A stretch of 27,108 nucleotides of DNA from a virus. The DNA is taken from IMG/VR virus record IMGVR_UViG_3300021964_000422, positions 1 through 27,108 of that record. The stretch is one strand, 5' to 3'. Position 1 is the stretch's first letter. Each line of letters begins with the position of its first letter. The notes below the pieces were generated by a model. That model made no database searches. It was not told the origin of the DNA and saw only the letters and a program-made list of their open reading frames with translations. Positions 2,869 to 18,216 of this stretch are shown piece by piece. A program made the position numbers and the translations under genes.

Positions 2869-3076
2869 TAGTGTTGTTGCTCTTTGTATGTTTATAGCAG
2901 GAGAGCTTAAAGAACATAGAATAAAAGAATCTATGTCAGATTGTTTGAAGGGAAAACGCCTTGCGGAACGTGATGTAAATGTTAATATTCAATACATGTG
3001 CGGGACTGTAGAAGCAGAGCTTGAAAAAAATATTGATGGTAGTATAAGTATAAAGAAAATTATCAAATCAAAATGA
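2852..3076 (+). CDS. Small membrane-anchored protein
   Basis: This 74-residue protein starts with a hydrophobic segment at residues 2-18 (ETVISSVVALCMFIAGE). A charged domain follows, with Cys at 31 and 50 that could form a disulfide if exported. It overlaps the preceding membrane-protein gene by 17 bases in another frame, which suggests the two are made together and perhaps act together. The arrangement of a membrane protein with an overlapping small anchored protein ahead of an endolysin recalls lysis cassettes, but neither a lipobox nor a spanin signature is present. Function is not known. The next gene overlaps its stop by four bases (ATGA). Confidence 0.6.
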   Translation: METVISSVVALCMFIAGELKEHRIKESMSDCLKGKRLAERDVNVNIQYMCGTVEAELEKNIDGSISIKKIIKSK

Positions 3077-3567
3077 ATTACAAAACTTTTAATAATTTTC
3101 TTGAAAAAGAAGAATTTTTAAAAGTTAAAAATATAATAACTCATCAAGAATTTCCTTGGTTTTTTGTAGGAGGCAATACTGAAATTAAAGGGGGATTTTT
3201 TATACATTCTTTTTTTAAAAAAAATCAAATTAATAGTACATATTTCCACGAGTGTTTAAAAAATATTTTTGAAAAACTAAAACCTAGAGCTTTATTAGAG
3301 GCAAGAGCTAACCTTTTACTTTCTTCATTATTTTACAATGAAAAATCTAGATGGCATACAGACTATTATGATGATAATTATACTGCAGTATTTTATTTAA
3401 ACACCACTGAGGGTGGTACAGAATTAAAAAATAATGATAAGATAGAATTTATTAAAGCAGAGGAAAATAAAATTTTATTAATGAAAGGTAATGTTGAACA
3501 CAGAGCAATTCTTTCCCCAGACACTGAAAAAAGATATATTATAAATTTAAATTACTTTGGAAATTAA
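3073..3567 (+). CDS. 2-oxoglutarate/Fe(II)-dependent dioxygenase
   Basis: The 164-residue protein has the complete facial triad of the 2OG-Fe(II) fold. H95-T-D97 lies in RWHTDYYDDNYTAVFYLN, the distal H143 in KGNVEHRAIL, and R154 in the EKRYIINLNY strand that usually binds the 2OG carboxylate. The Gly-Gly turn at 114-115 is typical. Such enzymes hydroxylate protein side chains or small molecules using O2 and 2OG. The length is minimal, about one double-stranded beta-helix domain with a short N-terminal cap. It lacks a Shine-Dalgarno, overlaps the previous gene by four bases, and is visibly more A+T-rich than the virion genes; one 60-base line (3181-3240) has 11 G/C. The substrate is unknown. 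Confidence 0.85.
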   Translation: MNYKTFNNFLEKEEFLKVKNIITHQEFPWFFVGGNTEIKGGFFIHSFFKKNQINSTYFHECLKNIFEKLKPRALLEARANLLLSSLFYNEKSRWHTDYYDDNYTAVFYLNTTEGGTELKNNDKIEFIKAEENKILLMKGNVEHRAILSPDTEKRYIINLNYFGN

Positions 3568-4261: not shown

Positions 4262-4957
4262 ATGGCTACATCAGGAACTACTAGTTTTAACCTGAATATT
4301 GATGAAGTTATTGATGAAGGTTATGAAAGATGTGGTCTTAGCACCACTTCTGGTTATGATATGCGTTCAGCTAGAAGAAGTCTAGACCTACTATTTGCTG
4401 AATGGGGCAATAGAGGTATTCATCTTTGGAAAACAGAACTTGATGAAATTTCATTAGTTTCTGGACAAGCCGAATATTCAGTATCAACAGATGTAAATGA
4501 TGTGCTTGAGGCTTATGTTTCTTCAACAGCAGCAGCTTCAAATAATGCAAACACACAAGATGTTTCCTTAACAAAAATTGATAGATCAGCATACGCTGCT
4601 TTACCTAACAAGTTAGCAACTGGACAACCATCACAATATTATGTTGATAGACAAACAACCCCTAAAATATATTTATATCAAGCACCAGATTTGAATACTT
4701 ATACTACACTAAAATTTTATGTAATAAAAAGAATTGAAGATGCAGGTGCATATACAAATGACGCAGATGTTGCGTATAGATTTTTACCTTGTATGTGTGC
4801 TGGACTAGCTTATTACCTAGCTATGAAAAAAGCACCTCAGTTAGTGCAACAAAATAAATTAATTTATGAGGATGAATTGAAAAGAGCCTTAGATGAAGAT
4901 GGTCAAAGAGCATCTACATTTATTACTCCACAATCTTTTTATCCTAATGGAGTTTAA
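4262..4957 (+). CDS. Head-tail connector / tail accessory factor, P22 gp4-like
   Basis: This 231-residue protein carries the pattern I associate with P22 tail accessory factor gp4 and its relatives. An N-terminal helix has DEVIDEGYERCG, followed by an arginine-bearing helix in DMRSARRSLDLLFAEW (about 33-48) and GIHLWKTELDEISL. A beta-rich middle ends in KIYLYQAP, and the C-terminus is helical. These proteins sit beneath the portal and close the head after packaging. A strong Shine-Dalgarno AAGGAG (4247-4252) supports ATG 4262. The two genes immediately after are also connector types, which strengthens the call. A general phage adaptor fold rather than true gp4 homology remains possible. Confidence 0.7.
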   Translation: MATSGTTSFNLNIDEVIDEGYERCGLSTTSGYDMRSARRSLDLLFAEWGNRGIHLWKTELDEISLVSGQAEYSVSTDVNDVLEAYVSSTAAASNNANTQDVSLTKIDRSAYAALPNKLATGQPSQYYVDRQTTPKIYLYQAPDLNTYTTLKFYVIKRIEDAGAYTNDADVAYRFLPCMCAGLAYYLAMKKAPQLVQQNKLIYEDELKRALDEDGQRASTFITPQSFYPNGV

Positions 4958-4959
4958 TA

Positions 4960-5358
4960 ATGCCAAAATTTGCTACAGGTAAAAACGCATTAGCTATTTC
5001 TGACAGATCAGGTATGGCATTTCCATATAATGAAATGGTCAAAGAATGGAACGGCTCTTTAGTTCATTATTCAGAATTTGAACCAAAACATCCACAAATA
5101 AGAAGAAGACGAACAGTGGCTGATGCAATTGCTTTACAAAATACCAGACCACAAAGATTTCAACAACCAACAAATAGAAATGGTGTTCAAGCAGATTCAG
5201 GTGGAGCTTCTGTTGGTGTAGCAAATTTAGCATTACCAGGAGACTTTGCTTTTATTAATCAAGGCACGTCAGAGATGAAACCTGCAGATCCATCATTACA
5301 GAATAGAAGAAGACAAATGTCTATTCAAATTAAATCCGTAACAGTGAGTATTACATAA
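4960..5358 (+). CDS. Conserved head-tail region protein (function unknown)
   Basis: The 132-residue protein opens with a conserved-looking block: KFATGKNALAISDRSGMAFP, then YNEMVKEWNGSLVH and EPKHPQIRRRR. I know very similar openings in marine phage proteins placed between the gp4-like factor and the adaptor. The paired position between two connector genes suggests a part of the head-tail joint or a maturation factor. The C-terminal half is low in secondary-structure signals and ends in a Thr/Ser/Ile beta-strand. It starts two bases after the preceding stop without a clear Shine-Dalgarno and overlaps the next ATG by one base, so the three connector genes are likely co-translated. Confidence 0.6.
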   Translation: MPKFATGKNALAISDRSGMAFPYNEMVKEWNGSLVHYSEFEPKHPQIRRRRTVADAIALQNTRPQRFQQPTNRNGVQADSGGASVGVANLALPGDFAFINQGTSEMKPADPSLQNRRRQMSIQIKSVTVSIT

Positions 5359-6014
5359 TGGCAATAACACATTCAGCATTTTTAACACAAGTAAGAAATT
5401 ATACAGAAGTAGGAAATACAGTTTTAACTGATCAAATTATTCAAGATTTTATAAGAAACATTGAACTCGATGTTGCAGGAAAAGTTGATTATGATGATTT
5501 AAGAAAATATGCAACATCTACATTCACAAGTGGCAATAGATACGTAACTTTACCCGCTGATTTAACTATTATAAGATCTGTTCAAGTGATTAATGGCTCA
5601 ACAAGAACTTTTTTAGAGAAAAGAGATACAAGTTTTATTTCTGAATACAATAATAATGCTGCAACAGGTCTTCCTAAATATTGGGCTAATTGGAACGATA
5701 ATACTATTTTAGTAGCTCCTATACCTAATTCTGCATACACTGTACAAATTAATTATATTACAGATCCACCAGAATTTACATCAACTAACAATACATTTTT
5801 ATCTACTTATCAAGAATCAATGTTATTACATGGTGTGTTAACTGAAGCTTTTTCTTATTTAAAAGGCCCCATGGATATGTACAACTTGTACAAAACAAAG
5901 TATGATGAAGAAGTACAGAATTTTGCTCTTCAACAAATGGGGAGAAGAAGACGTGCAGAATATGATGATGGGGTACCAAGAATTAAAATACCTTCACCAT
6001 CACCAAATACGTAA
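5358..6014 (+). CDS. Phage adaptor / tail connector protein
   Basis: This 218-residue protein has the helix-strand-helix plan of phage adaptor proteins, similar to the SU10-type adaptor family. The N-terminal helices contain TDQIIQDFIRNIELDVAGKV (about 24-43). A strand region carries RYVTLPADLTIIRSVQV, a middle block has GLPKYWANWNDNTILVAPIP, and the helical end contains YKTKYDEEVQNFALQQMGRRRR. Such proteins assemble as a ring between portal or gp4 and the tail. It overlaps the previous stop by one base (TAATG). The Pro-rich end PRIKIPSPSPNT is typical of an extended C-terminal arm. The family call rests on pattern memory. Confidence 0.65.
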   Translation: MAITHSAFLTQVRNYTEVGNTVLTDQIIQDFIRNIELDVAGKVDYDDLRKYATSTFTSGNRYVTLPADLTIIRSVQVINGSTRTFLEKRDTSFISEYNNNAATGLPKYWANWNDNTILVAPIPNSAYTVQINYITDPPEFTSTNNTFLSTYQESMLLHGVLTEAFSYLKGPMDMYNLYKTKYDEEVQNFALQQMGRRRRAEYDDGVPRIKIPSPSPNT

Positions 6015-9155: not shown

Positions 9156-9899
9156 ATGTTTGAAAACATTATAACTTTTGAAGCTGCAGATGAATTTATA
9201 GAAAATAATCAGGACAATTTACCCATTCCTGCAAAAATTAATATGCCAGAATGGTATAAAAAATTAGAAAGTTCAATACAATTAAAAACTGTAAAAGGTT
9301 GTATTCCTTTTTTGGATACTTTAAGTACAGGATATATTTTAAAAATGCCTTTAGATTATCATGTAGAACATAATATTGAAGATGAAGGTAAACGTGGTAC
9401 AGGATCAGCTAGTAGTCAAGAAGCTATTAATAAACTTTCAGAAAAAATAAATTTAAATTATGCTAAAAAATTAGAAATTCATCCTCCAAGACAATTAAGA
9501 GGAAGTCCTCACTTAGAAAAAAATAAAAATTTAGCCATTCATAAAATTTTAAATCCTTGGATAATTAAAACACCTCCAGGGTATTCTACTCTTTTTGTTC
9601 CCCCTCTAAATAATACTGATGATAGGTTTTCAATAATTCCAGGAATAGTAGATACTGATACATTTAATGTTGAAATAAATTTTCCAATTGTTTTTAATGG
9701 AGACAAATACCCTACTTTAATAACTACTCTAAAAAGAGGAACACCTTACGTTCAGTTAATTCCTTTTAAAAGAGAAAAATGGAAAATGAAAGTAAAAAAA
9801 TTAGATGAGCAAAAATTTACAAAAGATAAATTTTTTATGCAAAAATTTATTATTAATAATTACAAAAAAAAATATTGGAATAAAAAATCTTTTAAATGA
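9156..9899 (+). CDS. Conserved phage auxiliary protein, function unknown (possibly DUF6065-like)
   Basis: This 247-residue protein has a distinctive layout. LPIPAKINMPEWYKKL is at about 22-37, the block VKGCIPFLDTLSTGYILKMP at 46-65, then NPWIIKTPPGYSTLFVPPLN and GIVDTDTFNVEINFPIVF, and late GTPYVQLIPFKREKW. I know this arrangement from T4-like cyanophage and marine phage proteins next to 2OG-Fe(II) oxygenases. I connect it tentatively with DUF6065, a name to be verified. The all-beta C-terminal part could bind a small molecule or sugar, which is not proven. It is A+T-rich, lacks a Shine-Dalgarno, and overlaps the following dioxygenase gene by four bases (ATGA). Confidence 0.65.
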   Translation: MFENIITFEAADEFIENNQDNLPIPAKINMPEWYKKLESSIQLKTVKGCIPFLDTLSTGYILKMPLDYHVEHNIEDEGKRGTGSASSQEAINKLSEKINLNYAKKLEIHPPRQLRGSPHLEKNKNLAIHKILNPWIIKTPPGYSTLFVPPLNNTDDRFSIIPGIVDTDTFNVEINFPIVFNGDKYPTLITTLKRGTPYVQLIPFKREKWKMKVKKLDEQKFTKDKFFMQKFIINNYKKKYWNKKSFK

Positions 9900-10483
9900 G
9901 TTTTGATTTACATAATTATATCTTTATTAAAGATAATGCAATGCCTGAAGAAGTTGTAAAAAAATTTTTAAAATTTTGTAAATTTGATTTAAATTTAACT
10001 CCAGGTGCTTTAGTAGGTAAAAAGAATTCCTGGAAAGATAATACTGTCAACAAAAATGTTAGAGACGTAAAAACCCACATTTTAAAAAATTTAGGCACTA
10101 AAAGCCTAACAGAAGTGCATTGGGCAAATTATTTATCTTTTGTTTTTACAAATGGAATAAAAGACTATCTAAAAATACATTCTATAGATGGACCTTTTAG
10201 ATTAATGGATATTCAAATTTTGAAATATCAAAAAGGTGGTCACTACATGTTTCATGTAGATCATGGTACAGCGATATCCAGAACTTTTAGCTGTATTTTT
10301 TTGGTAAATGAAAATTATGAAGGTGGTGATTTAATTTTTAAGTATCCAGGATCCAATCAAACAAGTACAGTAGAAAAAAAACAAAACAGGCTAATAGTTT
10401 GGCCGAGTAATTTTTTGTTTCCTCATATGGTAACTCCTGTTATAGAAGGAGAAAGGTATTCAGTAGTAGCATGGGCATTATAA
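9896..10483 (+). CDS. 2OG-Fe(II) dioxygenase, prolyl-4-hydroxylase-like
   Basis: The 195-residue protein has all catalytic residues of the P4H-type fold. H120-V-D122 lies in KGGHYMFHVDHG, the Gly-Gly-Asp turn at 143-145 in NYEGGDLIF, distal H177 in FPHMVTPV, and R187 in GERYSVVAW. The N-terminal half is a helical cap. These enzymes hydroxylate residues in peptides, commonly proline or lysine, using 2OG and O2. It lies in an A+T-rich island with no Shine-Dalgarno, overlapping genes on both sides, between the fibre gene and the large tail protein. A virion or host surface protein substrate is a reasonable guess but not shown. Confidence 0.88.
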   Translation: MSFDLHNYIFIKDNAMPEEVVKKFLKFCKFDLNLTPGALVGKKNSWKDNTVNKNVRDVKTHILKNLGTKSLTEVHWANYLSFVFTNGIKDYLKIHSIDGPFRLMDIQILKYQKGGHYMFHVDHGTAISRTFSCIFLVNENYEGGDLIFKYPGSNQTSTVEKKQNRLIVWPSNFLFPHMVTPVIEGERYSVVAWAL

Positions 10484-11019
10484 GAAAAGATTTTAAATAT
10501 AAAGTAATTAAAAATTTTTTATCAAAAGATGAAGTAGATTTACTGTCTTTATATTGTGAAATAAAACATAGAACTAATTTTAAAGAATTTGATTTTTTAC
10601 AAACTGGTGTAGGGGACAGTTTTTTTTATGCTGATCCCGTTATGGAATCTTTAATGTTAATAAAAAAAGAAATTATGGAAAAGGAAACTGGTAAAAAATT
10701 ATTACCAACTTATGCATTTTGGAGAGTGTATACCAAGTATAGTGATTTAAAAAAACACAGTGATAGACCTTCTTGTGAAATTAGTGTAACAGTAAATATA
10801 AATGGAGATAAAACACCTTGGCCTATTTTTATGGATGGAACACCTGTACATCTTGAAAGCGGAGATGGAGTTGTTTATTTAGGTTGTGAACTTGAACATT
10901 GGAGAGAAGAATTTAAAGGCGATCATCAATTTCAATGTTTTTTGCATTATGTAGATGCTGAAGGTGAAAATAAAAATTGTTACATGGATCAAAGACCTTA
11001 TTGGGGGACTCAAAAATGA
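10471..11019 (+). CDS. 2OG-Fe(II) oxygenase-like protein, variant active site
   Basis: In this 182-residue protein, H96-S-D98 in KKHSDRPSCEISVTVNI and distal H143 in CELEHWREEF give the metal triad. The strand that normally carries the 2OG-binding arginine reads DHQFQCFLHYVD, with Gln153 or Gln155 and no arginine at the expected position. The enzyme may bind 2OG in another way (R145 is near), use another cosubstrate, or act as a non-catalytic partner of the dioxygenase just upstream. The end contains DQRPYWG. The gene overlaps the preceding one by 13 bases, has no Shine-Dalgarno, and is very A+T-rich (11 G/C in bases 10501-10560). Confidence 0.75.
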   Translation: MGIIRKDFKYKVIKNFLSKDEVDLLSLYCEIKHRTNFKEFDFLQTGVGDSFFYADPVMESLMLIKKEIMEKETGKKLLPTYAFWRVYTKYSDLKKHSDRPSCEISVTVNINGDKTPWPIFMDGTPVHLESGDGVVYLGCELEHWREEFKGDHQFQCFLHYVDAEGENKNCYMDQRPYWGTQK

Positions 11020-11284: not shown

Positions 11285-13435
11285 ATGCCTTTAACAAATG
11301 TACAAATAGCACCCGGATTTAATAAACAAGTCACATCAGTAGGAGCAGAAGGCCAATGGACTGATGGAGATTTTGTTAGATTTAGATATGGATTACCAGA
11401 AAAAATAGGTGGTTGGAGTCAAATTATAAGTAAAACTGTAGTAGGAGCTGTAAGAGAACAGCTTGTTTGGGCTGATTTAGATGGTAGAAAATATGCAGCA
11501 CTAGGAACTAATAAGGGTTTATTCATTTATTATGAAGGAGCTTTTTACGATATTACCCCTTTAGATACTGCTATTACAGGAATTACTTTTGACACAACAA
11601 ATACTTCAGCAACTGTTACTGTAAATAAAATTTCACATGGTTTGGTCGCAGGAGATTTATTCAAATTTACTTCAGTAACTCCTCCGGTAGGCGCAGGTTT
11701 TGTTGCTGCTGATTTTGAAACAAACACCTTTCAAGTTGTTACTGCTACAATAGACACTTTTACAATCACCATGGCAAGTGCAGCCACAGCCACTACCTCT
11801 GCGAGTGGTGCAGCTACTATTAATCCATATGTAAAAGTAGGACCTTTAAACCAAAGCTCAGGATTTGGTTGGGGAACATCTTCATGGGGTGGAGCTACTG
11901 GGGTTGTAAGCACTTTAAATGGAGCTTTATTAGACGATACCAACGGTACTGGAGGTGTGGGAACTTCAATAACACTTTCTTCAGTAACAGGATTTCCAAC
12001 ATCGGGTACAATAAAAGTTGGAGCTGAATTTATTTCATACACAGGAATATCGGGCAATAATTTAACAAATATTACAAGAGATGTAGCAGGTACACGATCT
12101 GCTCATGCAGATGGATCTTCTGTCGAAGTTTACACAGGTTGGGGTTCAGCATCTATCACAAGTTCAGTAATTCTTGATCCTGCTTCATGGTCTTTAGATC
12201 ATTTTGGACAAAAACTTATTGCAACAATTAAAAATGGAAAAACATTTGAATGGAATACATTAGGAGCTAACCCTACGGCACTTACTACAAGAGCTACTGC
12301 TGTAACCAATGCTCCAACAAAATCGGTCATGTCTATCGTATCTGAAAGAGATAGACATTTAATTATTCTTGGAACAGAAACTACCATTGGTTCAGCAGGG
12401 ACTCAAGATAAAATGTTTATTAGATTTTCTGATCAAGAGGACATAAATGATTATACTCCTACATCAATAAATACAGCAGGAACATTTAGGTTAGATTCCG
12501 GTGTTAAAATTGTAGGTGCAGCAAAAGCAAAAGACTACATATTAATATTAACTGACACTTCTGCATATGTAATGCAATTTGTTGGACCCCCTTTCACTTT
12601 TTCAATTAGACAAGTAGGAAGCAATTGTGGTTTGATTGGACAACATGCATTAAAATATGTTAATGGAAAAGTTTTTTGGATGGGTCAAGCAGGAGGGTTT
12701 TTTGTATTTGATGGTACTGTTAAATCATTGCCGTGTTTAGTAGAAGATTTTGTATTTACAAATAAAGGAAATAATTTAGGAATAAATTACACTGGAGGGG
12801 AGCAAGTGTATTCCGGATTAAATCATTTGTATGAAGAAATTAGTTGGTTTTATCCTAAAAACGGTTCTTCCAACGTAGATAGAGTTGTAACATATAATTA
12901 TACAGAAAATGTATGGACAACAGGATCATTAGCCAGAACATCTTGGCATGATTCGACATTGTATGACAATCCATACGCAACACAGTTCAACGGATCAGGG
13001 ACACCTACTTTCCCGACAATACAAGGTGTAACTAATATAAATGGTGCAAGCACCTATTACGCTCATGAAGTTGGTAATAATGAAGTAGACTCTGCAGGTA
13101 ACAAAACAGCAATTTCGGCATTTATACAATCTGGAGATTTTGATCTAGCTGTACAAGGTGACGGTCAAATGTTTATGTCTATGAGAAGGTTTGTACCTGA
13201 TTTTAAATTATTAACTGGTAATGCTCAAATTACAATTAATTTGAGAGATTACCCAACAGATGCTGCAGCATCGTCTCCTTTAGGACCATTTACAATCACA
13301 AGTTCTACAGATAAAGTAGATACCCGTGCAAGATCTAGATTTGCTAGTTTAAAAATTGCTAATACTTCAACAGATCAAAATTGGAGATTTGGAACGTTTA
13401 GAGCAGATATTCAACCAGACGGTATGAGGGGATAA
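11285..13435 (+). CDS. Large tail hub / virion structural protein (possibly P22 gp10-like)
   Basis: The 716-residue protein opens with LTNVQIAPGFNKQVTSVG and FVRFRYGLPEKIGGWS, and has repeated WADLDGRKYAALG and KGLFIYY strands suggestive of a beta-propeller core. Residues about 100-180 form a Ser/Thr/Ala-rich inserted beta module. Residues 229-285 form a second one with GTIKVGAEFISYTGISG and RDVAGTRSAHADGS, a motif I know from phage tail proteins. The C-terminal half again has propeller-like strands (VFWMGQAGGFFVFDG). With short-tailed phage connectors upstream, a P22 gp10-like tail nozzle is a good guess, but similarity to gp10 itself was not tested. The start has only a weak ribosome site. 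Confidence 0.6.
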   Translation: MPLTNVQIAPGFNKQVTSVGAEGQWTDGDFVRFRYGLPEKIGGWSQIISKTVVGAVREQLVWADLDGRKYAALGTNKGLFIYYEGAFYDITPLDTAITGITFDTTNTSATVTVNKISHGLVAGDLFKFTSVTPPVGAGFVAADFETNTFQVVTATIDTFTITMASAATATTSASGAATINPYVKVGPLNQSSGFGWGTSSWGGATGVVSTLNGALLDDTNGTGGVGTSITLSSVTGFPTSGTIKVGAEFISYTGISGNNLTNITRDVAGTRSAHADGSSVEVYTGWGSASITSSVILDPASWSLDHFGQKLIATIKNGKTFEWNTLGANPTALTTRATAVTNAPTKSVMSIVSERDRHLIILGTETTIGSAGTQDKMFIRFSDQEDINDYTPTSINTAGTFRLDSGVKIVGAAKAKDYILILTDTSAYVMQFVGPPFTFSIRQVGSNCGLIGQHALKYVNGKVFWMGQAGGFFVFDGTVKSLPCLVEDFVFTNKGNNLGINYTGGEQVYSGLNHLYEEISWFYPKNGSSNVDRVVTYNYTENVWTTGSLARTSWHDSTLYDNPYATQFNGSGTPTFPTIQGVTNINGASTYYAHEVGNNEVDSAGNKTAISAFIQSGDFDLAVQGDGQMFMSMRRFVPDFKLLTGNAQITINLRDYPTDAAASSPLGPFTITSSTDKVDTRARSRFASLKIANTSTDQNWRFGTFRADIQPDGMRG

Positions 13436-13603: not shown

Positions 13604-14839
13604 ATGAGCCAAGGATGTAACAACGTAAATGTAGAACCTACAGTTATTGGTGGTGGAGATGGATCTACTGCCTATGATGCATTTGGAAGATTAAGAGTTT
13701 CTAATCCACTTACTATATTTGATTCAACAAATGTATTATCTAAAAATAATTTATTTGATGAAGATTTAACTGGATCAGGAACCGTTACTTATACCTCAAA
13801 TAAATCTACAGTTAATTTAAATGTTACTACCGCTAGTGGTGATAAAGTTATTAGACAATCTAAAAGAGTAATGTCCTATCAACCAGGTAAGTCATTATTA
13901 AATTTAAATACATTTGTAATGAATGCACAAGAATCTGGTCTAGAACAAAGAGTTGGAATGTTTGATGCAAATAATGGAATATTTTTTGAGGACACAGGAA
14001 CTGCTTATCAGATAGTAAGAAGATCGTATACATCAGGATCAAGTGTTGATGATCCTATTCTACAATCAGCTTGGAATGGAGATAAACTAGATGGTACAGG
14101 AGCTTCTGGTTATACATTAGACCCAACTAAAGCAACTATAATGTTTTCTGATTATGAATGGTTAGGTATGGGAGCTGTTAGAGTTGGGTTTGTAATTGAT
14201 GGTAAATTTATTGTTGCTCATACATTTTTAAATGCAAATAACTTATCAACTGTTTATATGCAATCAGCAAACTTACCGATACGATATGAAATAGAAACAA
14301 CAGGCACTATATCAGGTGCAGCAGTATTACAACAAGTATGTTCAACAACTATGATTGAAGGTGGTTATGCTCCTGGAGGACTTAGACAATCCATAGGAAC
14401 AGCCTCTCTTGGAGGAGTTAATTTAACAACAGCTGGAACTTATTACAACTTAGCAACTATAAGATTGAAATCATCAAGACCTTATGCTGTTATTGTGCCA
14501 ATAGATATTGCCGCATCAGCAATATCTAACTCTGATTTTCAAATAGAACTTAGATTAAATGCTACACCATCTACTGCATTTTCGTACACAAGTTATTCAG
14601 ATAATGTAGAATATGATTTAACTGGAACTACAACAATTACAGGTGGAACAATTGTTGGACAGGCTTATTTATCTGGTAAAGGTGCAAATAATTTACAGTT
14701 TGCGCAAGATGGTTTTAATTTTGAGTATCAGCTAGGACAGACAATTGCTGGTACTTCTGATACATTAACTTTATGTGCCAAAGGAGCTTCTAATGGAGAT
14801 GATATTTGTGGTACATTAAAATGGGTTGATTTAACATAA
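13604..14839 (+). CDS. Virion structural / fibre protein
   Basis: The 411-residue protein has an N-terminal signature AFGRLRVSNPLTIFDSTNVLS (about residues 26-46) that I recognise from large marine phage fibre or neck proteins. YQPGKSLLNLNTFVMN follows near 92-107, and a long beta-rich region has GVNLTTAGTYYNLATIRL. It has no catalytic motif. Several glycine-rich turns (GGGDGS, TGTTTITGGTIVG) and the Thr/Ser bias suggest an elongated beta structure. A few Cys are present (residue 5, the VCSTTM region, LCAKGAS and DICGT), which is unusual for a fibre. It is followed by another small beta protein and lies upstream of a dioxygenase, so it could be a substrate or partner. Confidence 0.6.
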   Translation: MSQGCNNVNVEPTVIGGGDGSTAYDAFGRLRVSNPLTIFDSTNVLSKNNLFDEDLTGSGTVTYTSNKSTVNLNVTTASGDKVIRQSKRVMSYQPGKSLLNLNTFVMNAQESGLEQRVGMFDANNGIFFEDTGTAYQIVRRSYTSGSSVDDPILQSAWNGDKLDGTGASGYTLDPTKATIMFSDYEWLGMGAVRVGFVIDGKFIVAHTFLNANNLSTVYMQSANLPIRYEIETTGTISGAAVLQQVCSTTMIEGGYAPGGLRQSIGTASLGGVNLTTAGTYYNLATIRLKSSRPYAVIVPIDIAASAISNSDFQIELRLNATPSTAFSYTSYSDNVEYDLTGTTTITGGTIVGQAYLSGKGANNLQFAQDGFNFEYQLGQTIAGTSDTLTLCAKGASNGDDICGTLKWVDLT

Positions 14840-15177
14840 TGGCAAACGTATATAAAAACGCATTCTATGATCCTAATACTACTGCAGCAGTGACAGTGTA
14901 TGCGTCACCATCAGACTCAAGAGCTATTATTCAAAACATACAAGTAACAAACGAATCTGGATCAAAAATATTAAAAGCAAGCATTACAGATGCAACAAAT
15001 ACATCTACAATACAAATAGCTTATGCGTCCATATCTGGGCCAACTATTTGTAATATAGCTAAAGGACCAATTATTCTTGAAGAGAGTGACACATTAAATA
15101 TTGAATGTAACACTACCAATTCAGTCTCAGCTGTGGTATCTATCTTAGAAATAAATAGATCAGATCAAAATGGTTAA
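14839..15177 (+). CDS. Small virion protein (hypothetical)
   Basis: This 112-residue protein starts with a one-base stop-start overlap (TAATG). It has an N-terminal aromatic patch (YKNAFYDPN), then alternating hydrophobic strands such as AIIQNIQVTN and ASITDATNTSTIQIAYASI, plus a Cys in TICNIAKGPIILEE and one in NIECNTTNS. It resembles the style of the protein at 886-1206: a compact beta-sandwich of about 100 residues used as a virion decoration. No specific family or function is visible. It is positioned between a fibre-like protein and a dioxygenase gene, which overlaps its stop by one base. Confidence 0.6.
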   Translation: MANVYKNAFYDPNTTAAVTVYASPSDSRAIIQNIQVTNESGSKILKASITDATNTSTIQIAYASISGPTICNIAKGPIILEESDTLNIECNTTNSVSAVVSILEINRSDQNG

Positions 15178-15620
15178 TGATTGAATTAGAAAATTTTTTA
15201 CATCCAAACATTTGTAAGTATTTAATAGATTTTTTTCATGAGAATGAAGAAGAATCACATCTTTTTCATAAAAGAAAAAAAATAGATTTAATGCATTTAA
15301 ATAGTAAAGACCCTATAATAATTAACATTATTAATTTATATAAAAAAATAAAACCTACTCAAGTTTTAGATAATATAGAATTAATTTATTGGCCTCCAGG
15401 TGAATCTCATGTTTGGCACGATGATACAGAATATTATGATTTTACCACTATAACTTATTTAAATGATGGTTATATAGGCGGTGAAACTACTGTTGAAAAA
15501 TATAAAACAATTCCAAAAACAGGGAAGATATTATTATTCTCATCAGATAAAATGCATAAAGTAGACCTACTAGAAAAAGGAAAACGATATGTTATAGTGG
15601 CGTGGTATAAAAATGGCTAA
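15177..15620 (+). CDS. 2OG-Fe(II) dioxygenase (fourth in window)
   Basis: The 147-residue protein has H81-D-D83 in ESHVWHDDTEYYDF, the Gly-Gly turn at 101-102, distal H127 in SSDKMHKVDLL, and R137 in GKRYVIVAWY, giving a complete triad and 2OG-binding arginine. It is the smallest of the four and reads as a minimal jelly-roll core. It overlaps the previous stop by one base, has no Shine-Dalgarno, and is A+T-rich. It lies downstream of virion proteins and upstream of a metal-site protein and two glycosyltransferases, which suggests hydroxylation of a virion or surface substrate that may then be glycosylated (inference). Confidence 0.85.
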   Translation: MIELENFLHPNICKYLIDFFHENEEESHLFHKRKKIDLMHLNSKDPIIINIINLYKKIKPTQVLDNIELIYWPPGESHVWHDDTEYYDFTTITYLNDGYIGGETTVEKYKTIPKTGKILLFSSDKMHKVDLLEKGKRYVIVAWYKNG

Positions 15621-15741
15621 ACAAAAATTTACACATTTCGTACCTAGACCAAAACCTAAGAAACGTCCAGGGCGTCATAAAAAAACACTTAACAAAAATG
15701 AAAAAAGAGATTATAAGAAGTATAACAGACAAGGAAGATAA
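15613..15741 (+). CDS. Small basic protein (42 residues)
   Basis: ATG at 15613 overlaps the dioxygenase stop by eight bases, and the frame stops at TAA 15739-15741. The protein MAKQKFTHFVPRPKPKK continues with RPGRHKKTLNKNEKRDYKKY. It is extremely basic and Pro-containing, without Cys. I recall very similar short proteins next to fibre and internal-protein genes in marine phages; no function is known. It could bind nucleic acid or serve as a small head-internal protein. The start lies inside the previous gene, and the next gene begins two bases after its stop, which fits the dense packing of this genome. Confidence 0.65.
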   Translation: MAKQKFTHFVPRPKPKKRPGRHKKTLNKNEKRDYKKYNRQGR

Positions 15742-15743
15742 TT

Positions 15744-15941
15744 ATGAGTGATTTAATTAAAATACCCGCTGAAGCAAAAGAAATTATTAAACATAAAAGA
15801 TCTGGTAAAGTATATGCTAGTAAAGAAGATTTCGATGCCGATGTAGCTGACCCTAATACTGATACAAAAGCTGATGATTTTAGACAAGATCTAGAAATTA
15901 AAGTGACAAGAGTTTCAATGGGTGCTAAAACAAAAGAATAA
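15744..15941 (+). CDS. Small acidic hypothetical protein (65 residues)
   Basis: This protein has 65 residues starting MSDLIKIPAEAKEIIK and an acidic middle (KEDFDADVADPNTDTKADDF) followed by EIKVTRVSMGAK. A GGAAG-like ribosome site in the end of the previous gene (15733-15737) lies close before ATG 15744. No domain, signal or membrane segment is recognised. It lies between a 42-residue basic protein and the DHHHD-motif gene. The basic/acidic neighbour pair could interact, which is only a guess. It overlaps the next ATG by one base. Confidence 0.6.
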   Translation: MSDLIKIPAEAKEIIKHKRSGKVYASKEDFDADVADPNTDTKADDFRQDLEIKVTRVSMGAKTKE

Positions 15942-16447
15942 TGTTAAAAAAATATAGGGTTTTATCAATCGATTGTGATTGGGTTTTAACATTAAAACAT
16001 CAAACAGATCTTTTATCTTTTTTAATACCAATATTAAATAACCACAATAAAATATTTTTTTCATACATGCATCACGATATAAATAAATATTTTAATTTAA
16101 ATTTTGAAGAATGTGATATAGTAAATATAGATCATCACCATGATGCAGGATATGACTTAAAAAAAAATTCTTTTTTGCACGAAGGTAATTGGCTCTATCA
16201 TTTACTTCAAATATTTCCACAAAAAATAAATTATCATTGGATTTGTAATACCGATTCGGAACCAGTTAATTGGAAAGAATATTCACCTTCATTTTATAAA
16301 AATATAAAAGATTACTCATTTACTTTTGACATTAACAAAATAAAAAATAAAAATTACGATTTAATTTTTATTTGTTGTAGTCCAGAATATAATGGAGAAG
16401 TAGGAGTTACAACTTACAAAATTTTAGAGAATCTTTATGAAACCTAG
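15941..16447 (+). CDS. Unknown protein with DHHHD metal-site motif (arginase-fold/UPF0489-like?)
   Basis: In this 168-residue protein, SIDCDW (9-14), MHHDIN (43-48), NIDHHHDAGY (62-71), HEGNW (80-84) and CNTDSEP (102-108) are clustered His/Asp-rich motifs typical of a metal-dependent enzyme. The IDHHHDAGY block resembles metal-site segments of the arginase-like and UPF0489 families. The relation is by motif only and should be tested by profile search. There is no signal peptide or membrane helix. It is very A+T-rich (10 G/C in bases 16081-16140), overlaps the next gene by 11 bases, and lacks a Shine-Dalgarno. It sits between a dioxygenase module and two glycosyltransferases, so a role in polymer modification is plausible but unproven. 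Confidence 0.55.
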   Translation: MLKKYRVLSIDCDWVLTLKHQTDLLSFLIPILNNHNKIFFSYMHHDINKYFNLNFEECDIVNIDHHHDAGYDLKKNSFLHEGNWLYHLLQIFPQKINYHWICNTDSEPVNWKEYSPSFYKNIKDYSFTFDINKIKNKNYDLIFICCSPEYNGEVGVTTYKILENLYET

Positions 16448-17372
16448 AGGCGCAACAGAAATACAACACGAACTACTGGAGAAATATGTTAGTAAAGAAT
16501 TATTGGATAAAGTACAGATATGTACCTCAGTACCCGGCAAAGTACCGTTAGATTCTAATAAAGTAAATATACTTTGGCAGAAAAATTCATATGACCAACC
16601 AAACCTACAAGAGTTCTTTGGTAATAAAGAAAGACACAAAGAATATGATTGGTATGTATTCAACTCACATTGGAACTATGAAAAATTTAGATACTTTTTT
16701 GATATACCAACGGATAGATCTATTGTAATTAAAAATGGTATTGAATCTTTTCCACAAAGAAAAATATATAAAAAAGGCGACCCTATAAAATTAATACATC
16801 ACTGCACTCCATGGAGAGGTTTAAATGTTTTATTAAGGGCAATGCAAGAAATTACTGACCCCAACATCACGTTAGATGTTTATTCATCTACACAGGTTTA
16901 TGGTGATCAATTTAAACAACAGAATGATGATCAGTTTAAACCTTTATATGAACAGGCTCAAAAATTACCAAATGTAAATTATATTGGTTATAAAACAAAT
17001 GAATACATAAGAGAGGTGATGCCAAGCTACGATATGTTTGTGTATCCAAGTACCTTTGAAGAAACATCCTGTGTATCTGCTCTTGAGGCTTTAGCATCAG
17101 GTGTTCACGTTGTTACTAATAACTATGGTGCATTATATGAAACCTGTGCAGAATGGCCTGTGTATATAAATTACATAGAAGACTTTGAAAAAATGGCAAG
17201 AGGAACCGCTGAGGCAATTAAAGTTGCAGCAAGTTATTTACACGAGCCTTTTATACAAGATCACTTGGAGCAGCAACAATTATTCTATAAAAGATTTTAT
17301 AACTGGAATAAAAAAGGAATGGAATGGGAAAGCTTTTTGAGAGGAGCCATCAGTGAGCACAATAAAGCCTAA
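16437..17372 (+). CDS. Glycosyltransferase, GT4 type (GT-B fold)
   Basis: The 311-residue protein has the C-terminal GT-B nucleotide-sugar domain. IKLIHHCTPWRGLNVLLRAM (about 117-136) is followed by LPNVNYIGYKTN and then MFVYPSTFEETSCVSALEALASG. In the last block E209 and E217 form the EX7E motif of GT4-type retaining enzymes. VIKNGIESFP near 97-106 is the usual linker before the C-terminal domain. The N-terminal domain is short, with FNSHWNYEKFR. It would transfer a sugar from a nucleotide donor to an unknown acceptor. The start overlaps the previous gene by 11 bases. Together with the next gene it forms a likely two-step glycosylation unit. Confidence 0.82.
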   Translation: MKPRGATEIQHELLEKYVSKELLDKVQICTSVPGKVPLDSNKVNILWQKNSYDQPNLQEFFGNKERHKEYDWYVFNSHWNYEKFRYFFDIPTDRSIVIKNGIESFPQRKIYKKGDPIKLIHHCTPWRGLNVLLRAMQEITDPNITLDVYSSTQVYGDQFKQQNDDQFKPLYEQAQKLPNVNYIGYKTNEYIREVMPSYDMFVYPSTFEETSCVSALEALASGVHVVTNNYGALYETCAEWPVYINYIEDFEKMARGTAEAIKVAASYLHEPFIQDHLEQQQLFYKRFYNWNKKGMEWESFLRGAISEHNKA

Positions 17373-18216
17373 ACCTAAATTAGTTGATGGAGTAAAAAAG
17401 ATTACTCCTATGTGGAAAACGGATAACGGACAACGGCCACCGGCTAAGTTACAATTAAATGAAGCACCTTATTCAGTATTTGTTGCAACACCCGTACACG
17501 ATCAATGTTCTATTCATTATGCCCAAGGACTACTAGAGTTTCAAAAAGAATGCATTAAAAGAAATGTACAAGTTGCGTTTCAAATTATGAAGTCATCTTT
17601 AGTTACACAGGGTAGAAATTTATGTGTATCTGGGTTTATTGAATCTGGTATGACACATATGTTGTTTATTGATTCTGACATATTATTTAATGCGGAATCT
17701 ATATTTAAAATGATTGAAAGAGACAAAGATGTTATTTCAATACCTTATCCATTAAAAACTTTAATGTGGGATAAAGCTTTTAGAAAAATGCAAAATGGTG
17801 AGATTGAAAAGCCTGATGATATTAGAAAATGGTTACACACCTATCCGATGAAAATAGAAAACACTAATAATGTAAATGTTGAAAGAGGTGTAATCGAAGT
17901 AACTCATAGTCCAACAGGATGTATGTTAATTAAAAGACAAGTGTTTGACAAAATGATTAAAGCTTACCCAGATAAACAAATTGTACAAAAAACAGTTATA
18001 AATGGCGAATATGTAGATAAACCTCATATGTGGAATTTTTTTGATACTATTCACGACCCAAAAACTAAAACTTATTTAGGCGAAGATTTTTCTTTCTGTA
18101 AATTATGGAGAGAAATAGGTGGTAAATGTCATGCCTTTATTGATGACCCTATAGCTCATATAGGTGAACATCAGTATCAAGGACGATTTGCTGATGAGTT
18201 GATATTACCTAAGTAA
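17353..18216 (+). CDS. Glycosyltransferase, GT-A type
   Basis: The 287-residue protein starts at GTG 17353, chosen because GAGGAG (17340-17345) lies seven bases upstream. The GT-A signature is visible: FVATPVHDQC at 43-52, SLVTQGRNL (82-90), and HMLFIDSDILF (102-112) with the DxD motif D107-S-D109. The later GEDFSFCKLWREIGGKCHAF (about 244-263) resembles the acceptor/catalytic region of phage GT-A enzymes. It probably uses a metal-bound nucleotide sugar. It overlaps the GT4 gene by 20 bases, so both are made together. The cellular target is unknown; virion protein, host polysaccharide and DNA are all possible. Confidence 0.8.
   Translation: MSTIKPKPKLVDGVKKITPMWKTDNGQRPPAKLQLNEAPYSVFVATPVHDQCSIHYAQGLLEFQKECIKRNVQVAFQIMKSSLVTQGRNLCVSGFIESGMTHMLFIDSDILFNAESIFKMIERDKDVISIPYPLKTLMWDKAFRKMQNGEIEKPDDIRKWLHTYPMKIENTNNVNVERGVIEVTHSPTGCMLIKRQVFDKMIKAYPDKQIVQKTVINGEYVDKPHMWNFFDTIHDPKTKTYLGEDFSFCKLWREIGGKCHAFIDDPIAHIGEHQYQGRFADELILPK

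What the first reader, a model, noticed from the sequence alone, without database searches (positions are those of the whole stretch)
15177..18216. Candidate hydroxylation-glycosylation module next to fibre and internal proteins
A dioxygenase, a DHHHD metal-site protein, a GT4-type and a GT-A-type glycosyltransferase are linked head to tail with overlapping starts. Known biology includes hydroxylated residues serving as sugar acceptors (hydroxylysine or hydroxyproline). A phage could modify its fibres, mask surface receptors or alter host polysaccharide. I do not know a described phage system of exactly this composition, so it deserves attention.
Basis: inference. Interest (0 to 1): 0.65.

Follow-up and report, generated by a model that had tools for sequence, protein, structure and literature searches.

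The report
Phage tail-side protein-modification gene cassette
In an abundant group of viruses that infect ocean SAR11 bacteria, a fixed pair of sugar-attaching enzymes sits beside the tail genes, behind a slot that swaps in different hydroxylases, a halogenase or an arginase-like enzyme, which suggests (unproven) that the virus chemically decorates its own particle proteins.

Summary
All four genes are real and the family guesses hold: 2OG-Fe(II) oxygenase (15177-15620), conserved six-ligand metal protein 'DHHHD' (15941-16447), GT4 (16437-17372), GT-A glycosyltransferase (17353-18216). The window is a fragment of an HTVC023P-type pelagiphage.

The exact four-gene set is not a conserved module. 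GT4 lies directly before GT-A in 75 of 75 relatives. The dioxygenase recurs at its site in one relative and DHHHD in two. The same two sites carry, in 19 of 73 relatives, other enzymes of the same kind: several unrelated 2OG/cupin oxygenases and a flavin halogenase. At least one 2OG oxygenase occurs beside the tail genes in 23 of 23 relatives with enough flank, none downstream of GT-A. Eight other pelagiphages lack both PF13640 and PF00534.

DHHHD carries the arginase/peptide-arginase metal-ligand set with one motif relocated. The nearest solved structures to the GT-A model, after an archaeal-virus GT, are collagen hydroxylysine glycosyltransferases (fold level only).

Best reading: a constant glycosylation pair plus exchangeable side-chain modifiers acting on a virion tail protein. 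The acceptor is inferred, not shown. GTs and 2OG genes in this group were reported in 2022.

The parts
15177..15620 (+). 2OG-Fe(II) oxygenase (slot A cargo), iron/2OG ligands H81, D83, H127, R137
   Evidence: PF13640 6.5e-10; ligands invariant in the 7-member alignment; 55% identical gene at the same site only in L079
15613..15741 (+). 42-aa basic conserved peptide MAKQKFTHFVPRPKPKKRPGRHKK..., shared by many pelagiphages
   Evidence: DNA alignment and translation; also in HTVC010P, HTVC019P and others, so not specific to this cassette
15744..15941 (+). 65-aa conserved protein, function unknown, always upstream of GT4 or of slot B cargo
   Evidence: median 83% identity over 74 loci; no family match
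15941..16447 (+). DHHHD metal-site protein (slot B cargo), arginase-like ligand set with SxDxD at the N-terminus
   Evidence: relatives in L083 (57%) and L076 (67%); cyanophage homologue annotated 'arginase-like amidino hydrolase'
16437..17372 (+). GT4-type (GT-B fold family) glycosyltransferase, invariant core of the locus
   Evidence: PF00534 4.5e-14; E209-x7-E217 conserved; directly upstream of GT-A in 75/75 loci
17353..18216 (+). GT-A glycosyltransferase (phrog_1574), D107-x-D109, E244-D245, H269 invariant
   Evidence: (pTM 0.81)
9896..10483 (+). second 2OG-Fe(II) oxygenase, beside the tail genes
   Evidence: PF13640 3.7e-18 genome search; phrog_61 1.2e-31
10471..11019 (+). 'ferrochelatase'-annotated partner of the 2OG gene
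   Evidence: phrog_2954 4.8e-50; phrog_3531 matches both this gene and the 2OG gene
14839..15177 (+). small virion-type protein before slot A (anchor gene)
   Evidence: phrog_1276 6.4e-10
13604..14839 (+). virion structural protein (possible acceptor, not tested)
   Evidence: phrog_1645 1.6e-109
11285..13435 (+). virion structural protein (anchor gene; possible acceptor, not tested)
   Evidence: phrog_3287 1e-86

Best explanation
The region is a virion-protein modification cassette in the late/tail part of an HTVC023P-type pelagiphage. A constant GT4 + GT-A pair builds a short glycan on a phage tail or fibre protein. Two sites next to the pair (A, before the 42- and 65-aa ORFs; B, after them) are exchangeable slots that take up enzymes altering amino-acid side chains: various 2OG/cupin oxygenases (probable hydroxylases), a flavin halogenase, or the DHHHD protein, a probable binuclear-metal hydrolase related to peptide arginases (Arg to Orn). 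In the window the cargo is one 2OG oxygenase and DHHHD. Hydroxylation could create or vary the sugar acceptor, and cargo turnover would diversify the exposed particle surface. Shown: gene content, conservation, slot behaviour, intact catalytic residues. Inferred: protein acceptor, hydroxylation before glycosylation, arginase-type chemistry.
For: GT4 directly precedes GT-A in 75/75 loci, and GT4 (median 79%) is better conserved than the neighbouring structural gene (63%), so it behaves as core, not moron. 19 of 73 loci have cargo in slots A-C, and every cargo ORF of at least 100 aa falls into one of ten clusters that are oxygenase-like (two of them, cl5 and cl7, only weakly), a Trp_halogenase (PF04820 4.4e-93, with GWVWNIP) or DHHHD. 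Modifying genes: 97 in 340 kb from 5 kb before the s11285 structural gene to GT-A, 0 in 305 kb downstream of GT-A. 23/23 loci with at least 4 kb flank carry a 2OG gene. Eight other pelagiphages have no PF13640 and no PF00534, whereas HTVC023P and HTVC027P have both. DHHHD directly adjoins an oxygenase gene in L083, L085-L090, L092-L094 and L098. The GT-A model is nearest, after STIV A197, to LH3, COLGALT1 and mimivirus R699. No TET/JBP or thymidylate-synthase-family gene in ten records, including two complete genomes.
Against: No acceptor is identified and no proteomics exists in the data. The GT pair occurs without slot cargo in most loci, so slot cargo is not needed for glycosylation. In T4-like phages the GT4 and GT-A homologues are not adjacent, and GT-A sits by sliding-clamp genes. 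GT-A similarity to LH3/COLGALT1 is 10-14% identity and TM about 0.4. The DHHHD/arginase link is below every curated cut-off, Foldseek found no PDB match under 1e-3, and OspR's Glu11 has no counterpart in the window protein. The loci are related, so counts are not independent.
Confidence: 0.5

Rival explanations
1. The GT pair modifies the host surface (LPS core or other glycan) during infection, for superinfection exclusion or release of progeny; the oxygenases are unrelated passengers.
For: A GT4 homologue in Caulobacter phage Cr30 lies in an ADP-heptose-type sugar cassette (epimerase, heptose kinase, isomerase); a GT-A homologue in ACG-2014f lies near a GT and a nucleotide-sugar epimerase. 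Earlier authors linked glycosyltransferases of Pelagibacter myophages to LPS modification (PMC9599517).
Against: In pelagiphages the pair sits inside the tail and internal-protein gene run, is invariant and carries no sugar-synthesis genes beside it; the ACG-2014f copy also follows tail collar genes. Does not explain why slot cargo is only side-chain-modifying enzyme types.
Confidence: 0.2
2. The tail region is just an insertion hot spot, and its 2OG oxygenases act on small metabolites, iron or 2-oxoglutarate (auxiliary metabolism), independently of the GT pair.
For: Tail regions are common moron sites (general knowledge); cyanophage 2OG oxygenases were proposed to affect 2OG/nitrogen balance (PMC3037559); 2OG genes here pair with 'ferrochelatases' (PMC9599517; window 9896-11019).
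Against: Cargo is almost only one functional class rather than a mix, ten clusters without detectable pairwise similarity converge on it, and arginase-like and halogenase genes join it; none lies downstream of GT-A.
Confidence: 0.2
3. The cassette makes a glycosylated or hypermodified DNA base (dioxygenase hydroxylates a base, GTs glycosylate it).
For: DNA hypermodification genes are known from some HTVC023P-type clades (PMC9599517); GT-A homologues in T4-like phages lie by replication genes.
Against: No TET/JBP and no thymidylate-synthase-family enzyme in ten records including complete HTVC023P and HTVC027P, which carry the GT pair; C5 methylase in one only; the published DNA-modification genes lie by DNA polymerase, not here.
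Confidence: 0.06

Closest known systems
HTVC023P-type pelagiphage auxiliary genes (PMC9599517)
   Same: Same phage group; the authors report three glycosyltransferases and eight non-orthologous 2OG-Fe(II) oxygenases paired with ferrochelatases
   Different: The sections read do not describe a constant GT4+GT-A pair with exchangeable slots, a halogenase or the DHHHD protein; 'halogenase' does not occur in the main text
Collagen lysyl hydroxylase/glycosyltransferase LH3 and COLGALT1
   Same: 2OG hydroxylase plus GT-A glycosyltransferase; nearest human folds to the GT-A model
   Different: Separate genes here, 10-14% identity, TM about 0.4, no collagen-type substrate identified
Peptide arginases (OspR; UPF0489, PF12640)
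   Same: Six-ligand set H, DxHxD, DxD, plus the I-C-x-S motif whose Ser (Ser264 in OspR) replaces arginase Glu277 (and alignments)
   Different: The DxD motif lies at the N-terminus, before the H and DxHxD motifs; no EEH; no dimerisation insert; below Pfam cut-offs
Cyanophage 2OG oxygenases, PrnA-like halogenases (PMC3037559) and the S-SCSM1 'arginase-like amidino hydrolase'
   Same: Same enzyme families in marine phages; the S-SCSM1 protein is a member of the DHHHD family
   Different: The S-SCSM1 copy lies among metabolic genes, not beside tail genes or a GT pair
Phage-encoded virion glycosylation (mycobacteriophages; from memory, not tested)
   Same: Phage GTs near structural genes modifying virion proteins
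   Different: No hydroxylase or halogenase slot known to me there

Membership tests
2OG-Fe(II) oxygenase superfamily (15177-15620) | Pfam match over cut-off; HxD...H iron triad and 2OG-binding Arg | tested here: met
   PF13640 40.3 bits vs cut-off 27; H81, D83, H127, R137 invariant
Prolyl/lysyl protein hydroxylase | Acts on Pro/Lys of a protein | not testable with these tools
   No substrate information in the sequence
GT4 glycosyltransferase | Glycos_transf_1 domain and E-x7-E motif | tested here: met
   PF00534 52.8 bits vs cut-off 26.4; E209 and E217 conserved
GT-A fold glycosyltransferase | Rossmann-like GT-A fold with DxD metal motif | tested here: met
   pTM 0.81; top PDB matches are GT-A enzymes, E down to 1.2e-8; D107/D109 invariant
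Collagen hydroxylysine GT (LH3/COLGALT1 type) | Sequence-family membership | tested here: inconclusive
   Fold match 7e-7 to 1e-6, but no PDB sequence match to these enzymes
Ureohydrolase / peptide arginase (DHHHD) | Six Mn ligands: His, DxHxD, DxD | tested here: inconclusive
   All six present and invariant, but in a different order; metal binding itself not tested
Peptide arginase (UPF0489) | PF12640 over cut-off with motif order EEH - DxHxD - DIDLDYF | tested here: not met
   No match over cut-off; best 0.0023 only after rotation and not in the window protein; motif order differs; EEH absent
TET/JBP + GT DNA hypermodification | Tet_JBP domain or hydroxymethylpyrimidine-forming enzyme in the genome | tested here: not met
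   complete only for HTVC023P and HTVC027P, the window itself is a fragment
Phage virion glycosylation system | Glycosylated virion protein dependent on phage GTs | not testable with these tools
   Needs virion mass spectrometry

The most novel reading that the evidence does not exclude
Abundant marine phages run a RiPP-like maturation line on a tail protein: interchangeable hydroxylases, a halogenase and a rearranged peptide-arginase-like enzyme rewrite side chains that a constant GT pair then glycosylates, giving rapid chemical diversification of the particle surface.
Probability: 0.2. Interest if true: 0.85.

Novelty: new variant of a known kind. Interest (0 to 1): 0.55.

Why it matters
Phage 2OG oxygenases and halogenases are widespread in the ocean and, as far as I know, lack proven native substrates; earlier proposals were nitrogen balance, DNA repair or metabolism. 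[quoted passage not shown] If true, it adds chemical diversification of particles to the phage-host arms race and points to new protein-modifying enzymes, including a possible rearranged arginase-type hydrolase.

Tried and rejected
(1) Exact four-gene module: rejected. (2) UPF0489/peptide-arginase membership of DHHHD: profile search of PDB sequences with the native and rotated alignment gave nothing credible; Foldseek PDB gave nothing below 1e-3; hhalign against four UPF0489 proteins gave only two partial matches at E 0.013-0.014. It is not a plain circular permutation, because the I-C-x-S motif keeps its place while DxD moves. (3) The 42-aa Pro/Lys/Arg-rich ORF (15613-15741) as dedicated substrate: rejected as specific, because HTVC010P has it but has no PF13640 or PF00534 match. 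(4) RNA structure or own promoter in the 15620-15744 gap: z-score +1.4 and promoter-like sites at background; the gap is the 42-aa ORF. (5) DNA hypermodification. (6) GT4 and dioxygenase had no credible sequence match in the PDB. (7) Literature searches for phage tail hydroxylation and for ADP-heptose GT cassettes gave nothing decisive.
Full report
WHAT THE WINDOW IS. The window is a 27,108-base linear virus record. Its nearest named phage is Pelagibacter phage HTVC023P (79% over part of the window), with matching gene order: structural gene, small virion protein, 42-aa ORF, 65-aa ORF, GT4, GT-A, internal proteins. The second cultured relative is HTVC027P.

OBSERVATION. All four ORFs are present. 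Dioxygenase: PF13640 6.5e-10, over cut-off, with H81/D83/H127/R137 invariant. GT4: PF00534 4.5e-14 and E209-x7-E217. GT-A: phrog_1574 1.8e-38, invariant D107/D109, E244/D245, H269, AlphaFold2 pTM 0.81. DHHHD: no family over cut-off, six conserved candidate metal ligands.

CO-OCCURRENCE. Of loci with enough sequence, GT4 lies directly before GT-A in 75 of 75. The 65-aa gene (median identity 83%) and GT4 (79%) are better conserved than the structural gene (63%). The slot dioxygenase has an orthologue-like copy at its site only in L079, and DHHHD only in L076 and L083. So the exact four-gene set is not a unit. Two sites, A (before the 42-/65-aa ORFs) and B (between the 65-aa ORF and GT4), plus rarely C (between the GTs), take up cargo in 19 of 73 loci. 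The cargo of at least 100 aa falls into ten clusters. Those scanned match PF13759, PF13640, DUF6445-like 2OG, JmjC/cupin or PF04820 tryptophan halogenase (4.4e-93; the protein has the GWVWNIP motif), or are DHHHD. Two clusters (cl5, cl7) have only weak Pfam support. In L076 and L083 the order oxygenase - 65-aa - DHHHD - GT4 - GT-A recurs with non-orthologous oxygenases.

CLUSTERING BY THE TAIL GENES. With HMMs built from these clusters, 97 modifying genes lie between 5 kb before the s11285 structural gene and GT-A (340 kb searched), against none in 305 kb downstream of GT-A. The loci are related and the HMMs were built from them, so the P value printed there should not be taken literally. All 23 loci with at least 4 kb before the structural gene have at least one 2OG gene; with at least 2.5 kb, 31 of 32. 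Genome-wide profile searches place the PF13640/PF13759 genes of HTVC023P at 43.3-47.9 kb and of HTVC027P at 42.1-43.4 kb, both beside the tail genes. Eight pelagiphages of other groups have no PF13640 and no PF00534 match. This is group-level evidence only: two cultured HTVC023P-type genomes against eight others.

SISTER LOCI. L085-L094 share the structural and 65-aa anchors and a 33-36% GT-A but show no GT4. They carry up to ten modifying genes, among them a halogenase in L085 (PF04820 6.8e-33), and in most of them DHHHD directly beside an oxygenase. L098, a 7.8-kb contig filed under a Flavobacteriaceae MAG, is almost entirely 2OG oxygenases plus DHHHD.

THE DHHHD PROTEIN. The family has about 60 viral members and a few from bacterial MAGs. 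The model (pTM 0.83) puts all motif residues at the C-terminal ends of beta strands. Its only strong fold match is another phage protein, from S-RSM4 (5.8e-10). Motifs: SxDxD[YFW] at the N-terminus, H44, D64-x-H66-x-D68, and I-C-x-S147. Peptide arginases have EEH(N/H)EAF, DxHxD and LDIDLDYFSC, and Ser264 in place of arginase Glu277 (PMC10028609); UPF0489 proteins fetched here show ICRS towards the C-terminus, which I take to be that point. Weak independent support: Pfam Arginase is the family most members hit, sub-threshold; UPF0489 reaches 0.0023 on rotation; annotators called the S-SCSM1 homologue 'arginase-like amidino hydrolase'. Against: different motif order, no cut-off passed, no Glu11 equivalent. 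I hold it as a probable binuclear-metal hydrolase of arginase type (about 0.6), with Arg-to-Orn on a protein as one possibility (about 0.3). Both numbers are judgement.

THE GLYCOSYLTRANSFERASES. Foldseek puts the GT-A model nearest STIV A197 (1.2e-8), then human LH3, COLGALT1, the LH3/ColGalT1 complex, mimivirus R699 and, further down, a PBCV-1 capsid GT. TM is about 0.4 and identity 10-14%, so this is fold-level only. In named phages all 15 GT4-bearing genomes outside the Manatee Spring contigs are in groups that also hold GT-A (for some this rests on the organism tallies). In the T4-like ones checked the two are apart, and the GT4 of Cr30 sits among ADP-heptose-type genes. That keeps a host-glycan or heptose role open.

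MECHANISM. Most likely a virion-protein modification cassette: a constant GT pair with exchangeable side-chain modifiers. Demonstrated: gene content, intact catalytic residues, invariance of the pair, type-specific cargo, restriction to the tail side. Inferred: late expression, protein acceptor, order of steps. Rivals are host-glycan modification, independent metabolic morons in a hot spot, and DNA modification; the last is disfavoured.

NOVELTY. PMC9599517 already lists three GTs and eight non-orthologous 2OG oxygenases in this phage group and names DNA or protein modification as possible roles. New here, as far as the texts read show: the constant GT pair with type-specific slots, the halogenase and DHHHD as slot cargo, the relocated arginase-type motif set, and the LH3/COLGALT1-type nearest fold.

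Noticed in passing
L098 1-7766: A 7.8-kb contig labelled Flavobacteriaceae MAG carries some nine or ten 2OG-type oxygenases in a row plus a DHHHD gene; probably phage DNA.
   Followed up: partly
L111 1553-3750: Three DHHHD-family genes in tandem in one viral contig.
   Followed up: no
L076 3208-3709: The DHHHD gene is split over two overlapping frames, so it looks broken or mis-assembled.
   Followed up: no
window 15613-15741: 42-aa Lys/Arg/Pro-rich ORF conserved in many pelagiphages (HTVC010P, HTVC019P, HTVC023P), overlapping the stop of the gene before it; function unknown.
   Followed up: partly
window 15744-15941: 65-aa protein as conserved as the glycosyltransferases, with no family match.
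   Followed up: no
L073 7496-9016, L081 7496-9016, L085 6979-8094: Tryptophan-halogenase family genes beside pelagiphage tail genes.
   Followed up: partly
window 10471-11019: 'Ferrochelatase' gene overlapping a 2OG gene; phrog_3531 matches both genes, so its real function may be tied to the oxygenase.
   Followed up: no
window 15177-15620, 3073-3567: PHROGs 2297 and 274 are named 'DNA endonuclease' / 'endonuclease V' but match proteins that Pfam or profile search call 2OG oxygenases; probable misannotation.
   Followed up: no
L157 (Caulobacter phage Cr30) 5947-9686: GT4 homologue inside a sugar cassette with epimerase, heptose kinase and phosphoheptose isomerase.
   Followed up: no
record behind L073 (G310) 4350-5483: C5 DNA methylase (PF00145 4e-54) in one relative only.
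   Followed up: no
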